Assembly (NCBI GenBank): GCA_040752815.1
Contig: JBFMGC010000015.1
Coordinates: 1-60,107 of the forward strand
From: Candidatus Zixiibacteriota bacterium
GTDB lineage: Bacteria; Zixibacteria; MSB-5A5; GN15; FEB-12
Direction of reading: 5' to 3'
DNA: 60,107 nt
The translations under genes were made by a program, and so were the position numbers. The notes under the pieces are model-generated. The model did no database searches and had not been told where the DNA came from. It saw only the letters and a program-made list of their open reading frames with translations. Position 1 is the stretch's first letter, and each line of letters begins with the position of its first letter. Positions 54,967 to 59,783 of the stretch are shown here, piece by piece.

Positions 54967-56622
54967 TCATTTCCCCAACATCGGGATCTTGATCTTATGC
55001 TTTCGCGCGAAGGCTTTGGCGTCTTTGTAACCGGCATCGGCGTGGCGCGCGATTCCAATTCCCGGATCATTGGTGAGCACACGATTCAACCGTTCAGACA
55101 TCTCTTTCGTGCCGTCGGCGACTATGACCATACCGGCATGAATCGCGAGACCGATCCCCACTCCTCCACCGTGGTGAATTGACACCCAGCTCGCGCCGGA
55201 CACCGCGTTAAGCAACCCGTTCAGCAGCGGCCAGTCAGCAATAGCGTCGGACCCGTCGAGCATCGCCTCGGTCTCGCGATACGGCGACGCCACCGAGCCG
55301 CAGTCGAGATGATCGCGCCCGATCACGACAGGCGCGGATATCTTGCCCTTCTTGATATAGGTGTTCAGAATCTCGCCGAACTGCGCCCGCTCGCCATAGC
55401 CCAGCCAACACACTCGTGCCGGCAGACCCTGAAACGGAATCCGCTCACGCGCTTTGGTGATCCAGCGCACGAGCGACTTGTTCTGTTTGAACGTTGCGAG
55501 AATTATATCATCGGTGACGGCAATGTCTTTCGGATCACCGGAGAGAGCCGCCCAACGGAACGGCCCACGTCCCTCACAAAACAACGGCCGCACATATGCA
55601 GGCACAAATCCGGGATAGGAAAACGCGGTCTTGAGTCCGCCTGTCTCAGCTTGCCCGCGAAGGTTGTTGCCGTAGTCGAACACGATCGAACCGGCGCGCA
55701 GAAACTTCACCATAGCGTCGCAATGCTTAACCATCGACTCATACGATCGCTGGATATACGCCTTGGGGTCGTTCTTGCGAAGCTGGCCTGCTTCCTGCAT
55801 TGTCAGCCGTTCGGGGATGTAGCCGTTTAACTCGTCATGGGCCGATGTCTGATCGGTGACAATATCCGGCACAATGCCCCGGCGATAAACTTCCGGGAAC
55901 ACCTCCGCGCAGTTGCCGATCAGGCCAACTGAAATCGGCTCGCCCGATTTTTGGTGCTCTTTGATCAGCTTGAGCGCCTTGTCCAGCGCTTTCACTTTGA
56001 CATCGCAGTAACCGATCTTGACCCGACGATCAATCCGCGCCTCATCGATTTCGACTACCAGTATCGATGCCCCCGCCATGGTGCCGGCCAGCGGCTGCGC
56101 GCCGCCCATCCCCCCCATGCCACCGGTCAGAATCCATCGGCCGGTTAAATCGCCCTTGAAATGCTGATCACCGGTGGCCGCGAATGTTTCGTAGGTCCCC
56201 TGGATGATCCCCTGCGCGCCGATATAAATCCAGCTTCCGGCAGTCATCTGCCCAAACATGGTCAGGCCACGGTCTTCGAGATCACGGAAATTCTCCCAGG
56301 TCGCCCATTTCGGCACCAAATGGGCGTTGGCGATCAGAACGCGCGGGGCATACTCGTGAGTACGGAAAATGCCCACCGGTTTGCCCGACTGCACTAACAG
56401 GGTTTCATCGTTGCCCAGTGATTTGAGCGACTTGACAATGGCGTCATAGCACCGCCAGTTGCGGGCCGCCTTGCCGGAACCGCCGTAGATGATAAGCTCT
56501 TTGGGCTTCTCGGCGACTTCAGCGTCGAGGTTGTTGTTGAGCATGCGGAGGGCGGCTTCCTGCGCCCAGCCTTTGCAGGACAGAGTTGTACCGTGGGCGG
56601 CCTTGACAACTTTTGGGGGCAT
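54967..56622 (-). CDS. hutU: Urocanate hydratase
   Basis: A 551-residue NAD+-dependent enzyme converting urocanate to imidazolone propionate. The ATG at 56622 is chosen: AAGGAG lies just upstream and [11 protein letters not shown]...[12 protein letters not shown] is the family start; the long frame reaching 57216 is antisense to the acetyltransferase gene. Motifs include [35 protein letters not shown] (cited in parts), [14 protein letters not shown] and the active-site [14 protein letters not shown]. Its promoter and an inverted repeat lie upstream. hutI is downstream on the same strand after a repeat-bearing gap. Confidence 0.96.
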
Positions 56623-56655
56623 TAGTAACTCCTTGGTAACCTTCGTGCCGGTGGG

Positions 56656-56685
56656 AATATACGCGACACAAGCCGGAGTAGTCAA
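56656..56685 (-). promoter_or_regulatory. Promoter of hutU
   Basis: On the minus strand, -35 TTGACT (56680-56685) and -10 TATATT (56656-56661) are 18 bp apart. A TSS near 56649 gives a leader of ~27 nt ahead of the AAGGAG site and the ATG at 56622. Confidence 0.7.
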
Positions 56686-56703
56686 ACATTGGATTCCGGC
56701 TTG
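56669..56703. promoter_or_regulatory. Inverted repeat flanking the hutU -35, possible operator
   Basis: CAAGCCGGA (56669-56677) and TCCGGCTTG (56695-56703) form a perfect 9-bp inverted repeat with a 17-bp spacer that contains the -35 TTGACT. A dimeric regulator bound here would block hutU transcription. No HutC-like gene is in the window. Confidence 0.5.
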
Positions 56704-56736
56704 CGGCAAGGGCGTTTTCGGCGTATTATGGACGCC

Positions 56737-57279
56737 ATGATCGAGAAAATCGCGGGGCGGCAGATCAATCTTCGGCGGATCAGACGTGCCGATGCACCGT
56801 CGCTGGTCAAACACATCAACGACATCACGGTCGCCCGCAACACGTTCATTCCGCATCCCTACGGCCTGAAAGACGCGCATGCTTTCATTCGCACCAATCA
56901 CCTGAATTGGCGCAAGGGCGAACGGTATGGTTTCGGGATCGAAGACCCCGCGACCGGCGAGATTATCGGCGGGATTGGTTTGGAGATGATCAGCCGGAAG
57001 CATCGATGTTTCGAGCTTGGGTATTGGCTGAGTCGGAAGTATCGCGGGAGAGGGATGGCGACCGAGGCGGTACGGCTGGCGGTTGGATTTGGATTCAAGG
57101 AGCTTAAACTGGTTCGGATTCAGGCGCATGTGTTCACCGGCAACGATGTCTCGGTGCGGGTGCTGGAGAAATGCGGCTTCACCTTTGAGGGGACGGCGCG
57201 CAAGCGAATCAAACACCGGGGCCGCTGGCGGGATTTGATGATGTATTCGATATTGCGGGGGGAGTGGCGCCCACAGTGA
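56737..57279 (+). CDS. GNAT-family acetyltransferase (RimJ/RimL-like)
   Basis: A 180-residue N-acetyltransferase. The fold is complete: N-terminal strand and helix ([20 protein letters not shown]), a central [19 protein letters not shown], the acetyl-CoA loop [17 protein letters not shown] (Q/RxxGxG/A-type), and the end [22 protein letters not shown]. The ATG at 56737 is taken, with 56728 (MDAMIEK) as an alternative. It is divergent from hutU; the target (ribosomal protein N-terminus, antibiotic or small molecule) cannot be told. Confidence 0.88.
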
Positions 57280-57319: not shown

Positions 57320-57349
57320 TTGACAAGCGCTATTCCAAGCTGGCATACT
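57320..57349 (+). promoter_or_regulatory. Candidate promoter of the methyltransferase cassette
   Basis: TTGACA (57320-57325) and CATACT (57344-57349) are 18 bp apart, in the gap after the acetyltransferase gene. This would give a leader of ~90 nt before the TTG start at 57446. A weak ACCGG/CCGGT inverted repeat lies in the leader. Confidence 0.55.
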
Positions 57350-57445: not shown

Positions 57446-58315
57446 TTGAAGAAACTCGGAGCGAACAACCAAGAGCTCTTCCACAGAGATACACCGATTA
57501 AGAGGAGGACTGCCAGCAACGCTTCCCGAGCCAATTCACTCGACGGTAAGACTTGGACGCGCTATTCGATCTCCGTTTGGAGCGACATACGAAAGACACG
57601 CGAAGAGACTGCTCTAGGTCATCCAGCAATGTTTCCAGCGGAATTGCCTTCGCGCCTCATTCAAATGTTGATGAGGGAGAACGACAGTGTCGTACTGGAT
57701 CCTTTTTTGGGCGTAGGCAGCACTCTACTCGCCGCTCAGCAGCAGGGCAAGCAAGGGATCGGACTTGAGATATCCTCTGACTACTGCGATATCGCCCGTG
57801 GCCGTCTAAAACAGACGGGAGTTTTCGAACGGGAAGTTGATCGGTGTGAGGTATACAAAGCCGATGCCCGTGATCTACTCACGTATGTGCAACCCAGTTC
57901 TATCGATCTTTGTGTCACATCGCCACCTTACTGGAACATTCTGCTTGAGAAACGCACCGCCGACTACAAGGAACGCCGTGACTACGGCTTGGAGGAAGCA
58001 GACCTCGGCAAAATACTAAAATACGCTGACTTCTTGGCGGCACTAGAGGAAATATTTCGAGATGTCTATGAGGTATTGCGACCCGGTGCTTTTTGTTGCG
58101 TCATAGTCATGGACCTCCGCAAGAAAAACGTGTTTTATCCGTACCACAGCGATGTGGCCATTTTCATGCAGAAGATCGGATTTATTTTTGACGACATCGT
58201 AATTTGGGACAGGCGCCACGAATACAACAACATGCGCCCTCTTGGATACCCGTACGTTTTCCGGGTCAACAAGGCACATGAGTATATCCTTCTGTTCGCA
58301 AAGCCGCGGAGTTGA
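57446..58315 (+). CDS. Site-specific DNA methyltransferase, probably N4-cytosine type
   Basis: A 289-residue DNA methyltransferase, first gene of a three-gene cassette. The AdoMet loop motif X/I is HPAMFPAELPSRLI then DPFLGVGSTLLAAQ (~residues 60-100), with the acidic GLEIS after it. The catalytic motif is TSPPYW (~residue 154), whose Ser-Pro-Pro form is usual for N4-cytosine enzymes. Motif order X-I-IV is unlike the more common IV...X-I order. The region after motif IV is only ~130 residues and no separate target-recognition domain is obvious. The TTG start is tentative. It ends 2 bp before the next gene. Confidence 0.88.
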   Translation: MKKLGANNQELFHRDTPIKRRTASNASRANSLDGKTWTRYSISVWSDIRKTREETALGHPAMFPAELPSRLIQMLMRENDSVVLDPFLGVGSTLLAAQQQGKQGIGLEISSDYCDIARGRLKQTGVFEREVDRCEVYKADARDLLTYVQPSSIDLCVTSPPYWNILLEKRTADYKERRDYGLEEADLGKILKYADFLAALEEIFRDVYEVLRPGAFCCVIVMDLRKKNVFYPYHSDVAIFMQKIGFIFDDIVIWDRRHEYNNMRPLGYPYVFRVNKAHEYILLFAKPRS

Positions 58316-58317
58316 CA

Positions 58318-59262
58318 ATGGGGGCGTTTCGCCTGGATGACTACATCGACATTGACGTAGCATATCTGGCAGGTCTAATAGTCGCTCGCGGGACACTCGA
58401 ATCGGCCCCTCAAAGGCGACTAGTCGTCCAATTCCCACATTCCAGTCTCGAGGCCGTAGGCATCTCATCTTCGTTCGACCAAGAACAGTCTATCCGCCTC
58501 GGTCTCAATGACATAAGAGAACGCATGGCTGAACTGTTGGATACGGACATCAAGATTGTGCGGCATACAAGCAGTGTCGACTTCGTGGTGACATTTATAC
58601 GCAACAGCATGATCTGGCGCAACATCCTACTGCTTACCGCCAACGCAACTAGTTTTCCGTATTTCAAAGTCCCAGCGATCTTCTTTGACCGTGAGCTCCC
58701 AACGGACTACAAAAGGGAGTTTCTGAAGGGCTACGGGGATACAGCCGGAAATGTGCGCAAGTCCAACGTCTACGCCGACGGCCGGCACCGCGTACGGCTT
58801 GATGTACTGAACTATCCCACAAACTGGGACGTACCTGTACAGCTTTGCATGTTGTTGCAGGAACATGTTGGGATTCCGGTACAGTTGATCACCTGGGGCC
58901 ATCCAAACCTCGGCCGTGAATTCCGCGAGCACCAGATAAACATATTCGCCGACGCCTACCTGAAAATCGGCTTTTCCTTTGATCATAAGCAGATCATACT
59001 TCAAGAGCTTGCAGCAGCTAACGGCCGTCATAGACCGTGCGTCGAGCCAAGGGAATGCCCCGGCCTGCGTGCACTGCGCGGTCAAAAACCCCATGACCCG
59101 GAAGAAGACGATTCTGATAGACTCGATCCTCGTCTCTTCGGTAAGCACTTTAACAGCTACTGGCAAATCTGCAAGGCCATTGGTTGCGAGCGTGTTCCCC
59201 CGGACGACGGTCAAACTCAGCTAGAATTCGTCGACGACTCTGAACCTGCCGAAGATCAATGA
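58318..59262 (+). CDS. LAGLIDADG-fold protein with degenerate catalytic motifs
   Basis: A 314-residue protein, second in the cassette. The ATG at 58318 has GGAG 6 nt upstream, inside the methyltransferase end; a TTG at 58312 is an alternative. Two motifs ~118 residues apart look like a single-chain LAGLIDADG pseudo-dimer: YLAGLIVARGTL (residues 16-27) and, after VPAIFF, FLKGYGDTAGNV (135-146). The positions of the two catalytic acids (the D/E just before the final Gly) are Arg24 and Ala143, so cleavage by this fold looks lost. The C-terminal ~90 residues hold spaced Cys pairs and an acidic stretch. It overlaps the nuclease gene by 4 nt. DNA binding is inferred. Confidence 0.7.
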   Translation: MGAFRLDDYIDIDVAYLAGLIVARGTLESAPQRRLVVQFPHSSLEAVGISSSFDQEQSIRLGLNDIRERMAELLDTDIKIVRHTSSVDFVVTFIRNSMIWRNILLLTANATSFPYFKVPAIFFDRELPTDYKREFLKGYGDTAGNVRKSNVYADGRHRVRLDVLNYPTNWDVPVQLCMLLQEHVGIPVQLITWGHPNLGREFREHQINIFADAYLKIGFSFDHKQIILQELAAANGRHRPCVEPRECPGLRALRGQKPHDPEEDDSDRLDPRLFGKHFNSYWQICKAIGCERVPPDDGQTQLEFVDDSEPAEDQ

Positions 59263-59783
59263 AATATTCGCGCGAAGATCAAATGTATCCTCACGTTTCG
59301 GGCTGGTTGGAAGCTTTTCTTAAAGACAGACACAGACATGCCGAGATCAGGGTCATCGATGCGTCCCGGAAAAGCTTATCAAGACTGATTACAGATTACG
59401 GTTTTCAGGATCGAGTTCCTGCGGAATGGGTTTCTTGGGACATTCAGGTAGATGTGGTGGGATTCGTGCTCCAGAAACAGCAGATGCTGATGGCGTTCGT
59501 CGAATGCAAAGTCGGGTTTCTTACTTTGAGAGATCTTAGCCAGTTGCTCGGCTATTCGCGTGTCGCCTTGCCACGGTACTCCTTTCTCGTGTCCCCTGAG
59601 GGCCCGTCTGATTTTCTGACTTCATTACTGAGGACATATAACCGGTCCGACGTGTTGCGATACAACTTCCCCATCGGTCAAACGCCCTGGTCAATTGCAG
59701 TTGGTCGCTGGATCGGTCAGGCGAAGAATCTTGATTGGTCATCTGTGATCTCTGATGATGTCATGTTCCTTGGGCAACTCTAG
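59259..59783 (+). CDS. Small PD-(D/E)XK-type nuclease
   Basis: A 174-residue protein, third in the cassette. Pattern: N-terminal helix with an acidic residue (YPHVSGWLEAFL), then DIQVDVVGF (Asp65), strand LMAFVECKVG giving E82-x-K84, and LRDLSQLLGYSRVALPRY, the usual helix and Gln after the catalytic strand. This is a plausible PD-(D/E)XK core, with the first motif being an isolated Asp. No DNA-recognition domain is evident, which fits a partner supplying specificity. It starts within the stop of the LAGLIDADG gene (ATGA), so the two are coupled. Confidence 0.78.
   Translation: MKYSREDQMYPHVSGWLEAFLKDRHRHAEIRVIDASRKSLSRLITDYGFQDRVPAEWVSWDIQVDVVGFVLQKQQMLMAFVECKVGFLTLRDLSQLLGYSRVALPRYSFLVSPEGPSDFLTSLLRTYNRSDVLRYNFPIGQTPWSIAVGRWIGQAKNLDWSSVISDDVMFLGQL

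What the first reader, a model, noticed from the sequence alone, without database searches (positions are those of the whole stretch)
57446..59783. Three-gene cassette: DNA methyltransferase, LAGLIDADG-fold protein, PD-(D/E)XK nuclease
The three genes are tightly packed (2-bp gap, then a 4-nt ATGA overlap) and behave as one transcription unit behind a single TTGACA promoter. A methyltransferase plus a nuclease is the logic of restriction-modification. What is odd is the middle gene: a LAGLIDADG fold, normally a homing endonuclease or intein domain, co-translated with a separate, small PD-(D/E)XK nuclease lacking its own recognition domain. The working idea is that the LAGLIDADG protein reads a long target site for one or both partners. 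I do not know a described system with this layout.
Basis: partly seen in the sequence, partly recalled or inferred. Interest (0 to 1): 0.85.

Follow-up and report, generated by a model that had tools for sequence, protein, structure and literature searches.

The report
Restriction system guided by dead LAGLIDADG protein
A bacterial DNA-defence cassette seems to have turned a homing-endonuclease fold that has lost its cutting residues into the part that reads the target sequence, leaving the cutting to a small separate nuclease; the same layout recurs in dozens of bacteria, archaea, plasmids and phages and I found no published description of it.

Summary
The three genes are real: a DNA methyltransferase (M, 57446-58315), a two-motif LAGLIDADG protein (LAG, 58318-59262) and a small PD-(D/E)XK nuclease (NUC, 59259-59783). 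LAG and NUC match nothing at curated cut-offs in Pfam, NCBIfam, PADLOC or PHROGs. AlphaFold plus Foldseek put LAG in the I-DmoI/WhiA fold, and NUC shows the complete D...ExK...QxxxY signature. Searching with LAG alone found 87 non-redundant loci in bacteria, archaea, phages and plasmids: 84 have NUC directly downstream (72 overlapping) and all 85 that can be judged have a methyltransferase upstream. LAG has lost the catalytic acid of both LAGLIDADG motifs in every member, whereas NUC's D, E, K, Q and Y are invariant (78/78). The 52 two-methyltransferase loci always pair an adenine-type with a cytosine-type enzyme, which suggests an asymmetric target. In two related genomes the window-type methyltransferase is followed instead by a degenerate LAGLIDADG domain joined to a BfiI-like PLD nuclease (one intact gene, one split over two contigs). 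Best reading: a Type II-like restriction-modification family in which a catalytically dead LAGLIDADG module reads the site and a separate nuclease cuts. No activity has been shown; the target sequence and LAG-NUC contact are inferred. New variant of a known kind.

The parts
57446..58315 (+). M: amino-methyltransferase, 289 aa, motif order X-I-...-IV-...-VIII; TSPPYW motif suggests N4-cytosine
   Evidence: Pfam N6_N4_Mtase 7.5e-35 in two blocks in swapped order; PDB 2zie E=3.7e-27, blocks in the other order; TSPPYW in 51/51 homologues
57698..57724 (+). M motif I (DPFLGVGST, SAM binding)
57917..57934 (+). M motif IV TSPPYW (catalytic)
58318..59262 (+). LAG: two-motif LAGLIDADG-fold protein, 314 aa, predicted target-recognition subunit
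   Evidence: AlphaFold2 pLDDT 88.8; Foldseek I-Tsp061I 1.5e-6, I-DmoI, WhiA; 82-row family alignment
58366..58392 (+). LAGLIDADG motif 1, LAGLIVARG; position 8 (catalytic acid) is R; family N47/R30/K4, never D/E
58723..58749 (+). LAGLIDADG motif 2, LKGYGDTAG; position 8 is A; family T53/A28/G1, never D/E
59259..59783 (+). NUC: small PD-(D/E)XK nuclease, 174 aa, overlaps LAG by 4 nt
   Evidence: AlphaFold2 pLDDT 93.3; Foldseek PD-(D/E)XK enzymes best, E 1.5e-3 and weaker
59451..59453 (+). NUC D65 (78/78)
59502..59510 (+). NUC E82-x-K84 (78/78)
59541..59555 (+). NUC Q95xxxY99, RecB/HsdR-like motif (78/78)
   Evidence: likeness to RecB/HsdR from own knowledge
57320..57349 (+). Promoter-like TTGACA-18-CATACT; not above chance

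Best explanation
The cassette is a compact Type II-like restriction-modification system. The methyltransferase marks the host's copies of a target site. The restriction side is split: LAG, a single-chain two-repeat LAGLIDADG protein that has lost both catalytic acids, binds the (probably asymmetric) site and brings in NUC, a PD-(D/E)XK nuclease core with no room for a recognition domain of its own, which cuts at or near the site when it is unmodified. Shown by sequence: three intact genes, tight linkage across phyla, loss of LAG catalysis, conservation of NUC catalysis, purifying selection, MTase swapping, and the alternative joining of a LAGLIDADG domain to a PLD nuclease. Inferred: DNA binding by LAG, LAG-NUC contact, blocking by methylation, cleavage geometry, defence against phages.
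For: Linkage: 84/87 loci found with LAG alone have NUC next (72 overlapping, 81 within 100 bp); all 85 that can be judged have an MTase upstream. From the NUC side the same records return: the same 3 genomes in the phylum sample, the same 2 phages and 2 plasmids. Division of labour: position 8 of both LAG motifs never D/E, NUC D/E/K/Q/Y invariant. Distance matrices of LAG and NUC correlate r=0.95 (0 of 1000 permutations as high); dN/dS 0.02-0.15 for LAG and about 0-0.13 for NUC. MTase type is clustered on the LAG tree (7 changes vs 42 shuffled) yet has been swapped several times. 52/52 dual-MTase loci are one adenine-type plus one cytosine-type enzyme, as expected for a non-palindromic site (PMC12898733). 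Window-type MTase followed by PLD-LAGLIDADG in G120 and, split over two contigs, G076, with that LAGLIDADG part matching the LAG profile and the MTases in the window clade. Mobile and patchy: 3 of 132 phylum genomes, GC 50-51% vs 56-60%, same-genus genome G038 colinear up to the GNAT gene and without the cassette; also on phages and plasmids, near GmrSD or ATPase genes in some loci.
Against: No experiment or methylome. No model of the LAG-NUC complex could be run. The window's M is single, so an asymmetric site would need a second strand mark or tolerate hemimethylation. One MAG (L007/L036) has a disrupted M with LAG and NUC open. NUC fold hits are weak (best E 1.5e-3). The PLD-LAGLIDADG fusion is one intact gene plus one split over two contigs; its profile probability to LAG is 93%, not higher.
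Confidence: 0.78

Rival explanations
1. Shared-specificity (Type I-like M-S-R logic): LAG is the reader for both the nuclease and the small methyltransferase, which has no room for a target recognition domain. This is a stronger version of the best explanation, not its opposite.
For: Window M spends its 289 aa on motifs X-VIII, with motif IV 131 aa from the end and motif I at residue 85; in single-M loci LAG is the only candidate reader; L038 keeps M-LAG without NUC.
Against: In 31 of 52 dual-MTase loci the MTases are of EcoRI, C5 or Eco57I type only, families that carry their own recognition domains (own knowledge). M relatives at 30-34% identity occur with no LAG detected beside them (L125-L127). 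Closest PDB relative 2zie also appears short of a TRD.
Confidence: 0.3
2. LAG is itself a nicking or cleaving enzyme using non-canonical residues and NUC cuts the other strand.
For: D141 at position 6 of motif 2 is invariant.
Against: Position 8 is R/N/K and A/T/G in all members and differs between clades; WhiA is a precedent for a degenerate, DNA-binding LAGLIDADG protein (own knowledge; WhiA is among the fold hits).
Confidence: 0.05
3. LAG is a homing enzyme riding on, or mobilising, an unrelated R-M cassette.
For: Fold of homing endonucleases; patchy, mobile distribution.
Against: Not inserted in an intron or intein; catalytic acids lost; one invariant gene order with overlap to NUC; diverges in step with NUC.
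Confidence: 0.04
4. The nuclease is modification-dependent (Type IV-like): LAG-NUC attacks DNA marked by a methyltransferase, or the cassette is regulatory and not defensive.
For: Best Foldseek hit of NUC is the modification-dependent enzyme MspJI, a weak hit; L007/L036 has LAG-NUC with a broken M.
Against: M is in the same tight operon in nearly all loci and its catalytic motif is intact (51/51 TSPPYW), which would be self-destructive if the mark were the target.
Confidence: 0.06

Closest known systems
BfiI / NgoFVII (PLD-type restriction enzymes)
   Same: Nuclease domain plus separate recognition domain beside methyltransferase genes; the PLD-LAGLIDADG relative in L123 has the HxK and GSSNFT motifs of this nuclease type
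Heteromeric Type II enzymes with split subunits (BstNBI/BspD6I; Type IIS/IIT group)
   Same: [quoted passage not shown] asymmetric sites usually need two MTases (PMC12898733)
   Different: The large subunit of BspD6I is itself a nuclease (own knowledge); no LAGLIDADG reader is named in that review
Type I / Type IIB R-M with a specificity subunit (HsdS; BsaXI)
   Same: A separate specificity protein next to M and R; NUC carries HsdR-like ExK...QxxxY (own knowledge)
   Different: LAG is not HsdS-like, no ATPase or translocase gene in the cassette, NUC is only 174 aa
LlaJI-type systems (two MTases, two R genes)
   Same: Two MTases plus two restriction genes in one operon (PMC11779793)
   Different: LlaJI restriction proteins are of another, McrBC-like kind (own knowledge); no LAGLIDADG
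LAGLIDADG homing endonucleases and WhiA
   Same: Fold and two LAGLIDADG helices; WhiA also has degenerate catalytic residues (own knowledge)
   Different: No intron/intein, catalytic acids absent, coupled to a nuclease and a methyltransferase

Membership tests
Type II restriction-modification system | DNA methyltransferase and nuclease genes linked as a unit | tested here: met
   LAG-NUC in 84/87 loci, MTase upstream in all 85 that can be judged
Type II restriction-modification system | Nuclease with an intact catalytic site | tested here: met
   D65, E82, K84, Q95, Y99 invariant in 78; fold model pLDDT 93
Type II restriction-modification system | Cleaves unmodified specific sites and is blocked by cognate methylation | not testable with these tools
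   needs biochemistry or methylome
LAGLIDADG homing endonuclease | LAGLIDADG fold with two motifs | tested here: met
LAGLIDADG homing endonuclease | Catalytic Asp/Glu at position 8 of the motifs | tested here: not met
   0 of 81 and 0 of 82
LAGLIDADG homing endonuclease | Encoded in an intron or intein or as a free-standing mobile ORF | tested here: not met
   stand-alone gene in a conserved multi-gene operon
PD-(D/E)XK nuclease superfamily | alpha-beta-beta-beta-alpha-beta core with D...(D/E)xK | tested here: met
   (Foldseek support only E 1.5e-3 or weaker)
Type I R-M (M, S, R) | HsdS-like specificity subunit and ATP-dependent HsdR | tested here: not met
   no ATPase/helicase gene in the window cassette, NUC 174 aa
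Type I-like shared specificity | M depends on the recognition subunit | not testable with these tools
   M size and motif layout leave no obvious TRD
BfiI/NgoFVII PLD restriction enzymes | PLD nuclease with HxK | tested here: not met
   absent from the window cassette; met only in the PLD-LAGLIDADG relatives L123 and L124

The most novel reading that the evidence does not exclude
LAGLIDADG proteins were recruited as a general, exchangeable target-recognition module of restriction-modification, serving nucleases of at least two unrelated folds (PD-(D/E)XK in trans, PLD in cis) and in the single-methyltransferase clade also guiding the methyltransferase, so that one dead homing enzyme specifies both marking and cutting of the site.
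Probability: 0.25. Interest if true: 0.9.

Novelty: new variant of a known kind. Interest (0 to 1): 0.76.

Why it matters
Type II restriction enzymes are described as using a few catalytic folds (PD-(D/E)XK, HNH, GIY-YIG, plus PLD and others); the large 2014 review of them (PMC4081073) has no occurrence of the word LAGLIDADG. If LAGLIDADG, a fold whose long DNA interface is well studied, also serves as a natural targeting subunit for a separate nuclease, it gives a natural precedent for detached meganuclease targeting, a possible source of unusual specificities, and an evolutionary route from selfish endonuclease to host defence. It also names two protein families, absent from Pfam, NCBIfam, PADLOC and PHROGs at their cut-offs, that are annotated only as hypothetical proteins in the phage and plasmid records seen.

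Tried and rejected
Single-sequence searches of LAG and NUC against Pfam, NCBIfam, PADLOC, PHROGs and PDB sequences gave nothing usable. A PDB sequence hit of NUC to a designed 'Circular tendon repeat protein' (E 4.4e-10) has zero stretches passing on their own and was taken as spurious. Profile searches against PDB sequences gave only chance-level hits. The first genome scan with LAG alone found nothing; the alignment scan found 147 relatives, 80 kept. NUC-side sampling of about 400 genomes each from the phyla of a Butyrivibrio and a Chloroflexaceae genome found only the query genomes plus one contig-edge fragment. Search for the PLD-LAGLIDADG protein in viral contigs and phages found nothing; plasmid hits matched only its PLD part. 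The promoter claim was tested and not supported. Literature searches for LAGLIDADG with restriction-modification, defence systems, specificity subunit, REBASE, BfiI and similar found no description of this layout; GmrS was once called LAGLIDADG but a later analysis rejected that (PMC4619093). The library lacks most subscription papers and preprints.

Full report
Observation. M is a DNA amino-methyltransferase (Pfam N6_N4_Mtase, 7.5e-35). LAG and NUC match no Pfam, PADLOC or PHROG family and no NCBIfam family near its cut-off, so I tested their folds with family alignments. An AlphaFold2 model of LAG (54-sequence alignment, pLDDT 88.8, pTM 0.88) matches I-Tsp061I, I-DmoI, archaeal intein endonucleases and WhiA (E down to 1.5e-6, probability 1.00). 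The NUC model (pLDDT 93.3) has the alpha-beta-beta-beta-alpha-beta order and its best matches are mostly PD-(D/E)XK enzymes (MspJI, PaqCI, NucS, BamHI), none below E 1e-3; the assignment rests mainly on the invariant D65, E82-x-K84 and Q95xxxY99.

Recurrence. Scanning 84,980 species genomes with a LAG alignment gave 147 relatives, 80 fetched; viral contigs, phages and plasmids added more. After removing duplicates, 87 loci remain: 84 have NUC after LAG, 72 with overlapping genes and 81 within 100 bp. The three without: L013 ends with the contig; L032 carries a deletion joining LAG to a NUC remnant; L038 has M and LAG and then a convergent HNH_2 gene. All 85 loci with upstream sequence have a methyltransferase upstream. 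Searching from NUC instead returned the same genomes, phages and plasmids. Hosts named in the record titles span Chloroflexota, Poribacteria, Acidobacteriota, Armatimonadota, Zixibacteria, Bacillota, Bacteroidota, Spirochaetota, Patescibacteria and archaea; many are MAGs, so single assignments may be wrong.

Division of labour. In LAGLIDADG enzymes the catalytic acid is residue 8 of the motif (own knowledge). In this family motif 1 has N (47), R (30) or K (4) there and motif 2 has T (53), A (28) or G (1), never D or E. In NUC, D65, E82, K84, Q95 and Y99 are invariant in 78 sequences. Thus one subunit has lost catalysis and the other keeps it. LAG and NUC distances correlate at r=0.95 (0 of 1000 permutations) and dN/dS is 0.02-0.15 for LAG and about 0-0.13 for NUC. 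LAG's C-terminal sheet is more conserved (R147, N150, R158, E204-H205-Q206 invariant; mean entropies 0.7-1.3 bits) than the N-terminal strands b3 and b4 (2.2-2.6 bits; b1 and b2 are 1.2-1.4), which would fit a conserved half-site read by the C-terminal half and a variable one read by the N-terminal half, or a conserved NUC interface; I cannot tell which.

Methyltransferases. Five arrangements occur: small SPPY-type M alone (the window clade, 28), EcoRI-type + C5 (23), Eco57I-type + small M (19), C5 + Eco57I-type (8), D12 + small M (2). Motifs agree with these classes in nearly all complete members. By family knowledge every one of the 52 pairs is one adenine plus one cytosine methyltransferase, the pattern expected if the two strands of a non-palindromic site are marked separately (PMC12898733); a monomeric two-repeat LAGLIDADG protein would likewise read an asymmetric site. 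The types cluster on the LAG tree (7 changes against 42 shuffled) but have been exchanged several times. In L123 both methyltransferases have SPPY.

A second nuclease. Searching with the window's M found two genomes of its phylum sample, without a LAG or NUC hit at the thresholds used, in which a 51%-identical M is followed by a PLD nuclease domain of the BfiI/NgoFVII kind. In G120 it is one 461-aa gene whose C-terminal part matches the LAG profile (E 2e-7; hhalign of the fusion alignment 93%, 4.3e-7) with position 8 N and K. In G076 the M carries one in-frame stop, the PLD part ends at one contig end and the LAGLIDADG part (motif 2 position 8 = R) starts another contig. On the M tree these sit with the window clade (long branches, support 80-93). 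So a degenerate LAGLIDADG domain accompanies two unrelated nuclease folds beside the same methyltransferase, which is what a recognition module would do.

Local history. The cassette's GC is 50-51% against mostly 56-60% around it. The same-genus genome G038 is colinear (about 73% identity) through the urocanase and GNAT genes to about 57267 and has no cassette hit. Only 3 of 132 phylum genomes carry it. The window's contig ends 324 bp after NUC, so the right boundary is unknown.

Mechanism and doubts. I favour: LAG binds, NUC cuts, methylation protects. Whether LAG also guides the small M is open; M has no obvious room for a target domain. Nothing here shows binding, cutting or defence. Novelty rests on absence from four family libraries and from the searched open-access literature, which is incomplete.

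Noticed in passing
L123:4918-6303; L124:4503-5255 with L131:1-828: PLD nuclease joined to a LAGLIDADG domain behind window-type methyltransferases; intact in G120, split between two contigs in G076.
   Followed up: partly
L007/L036 (LAG at 6010-6936 in L036): Methyltransferase lost its middle (203 aa ORF, C-terminal end in another frame) while LAG and NUC ORFs stay open; real decay or assembly error not settled.
   Followed up: partly
L038:4633-5544 (-): M-LAG without NUC, next to a convergent HNH_2 nuclease gene: possible third nuclease partner or a lost NUC.
   Followed up: partly
L025:4613-4915 and neighbouring frame: Broken second NUC copy upstream of M, remnant of an earlier or tandem cassette.
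   Followed up: partly
L043, L056, L057, L061, L044, L008 between MTases and LAG or after NUC: Recurrent accessory genes: unnamed 115-165 aa proteins, in some loci fused to a NOV_C domain (about 357 aa).
   Followed up: partly
L005:4202-6295; L009:6391-8979; L046:7392-9530: GmrSD Type IV restriction gene or SMC/AAA ATPase genes directly after the cassette in phage and MAG loci, suggesting defence islands.
   Followed up: partly
window 54967-57216 (-): The 749-aa ORF is a urocanase (about 55000-56634) with a probably spurious N-terminal extension over the GNAT gene on the other strand.
   Followed up: partly
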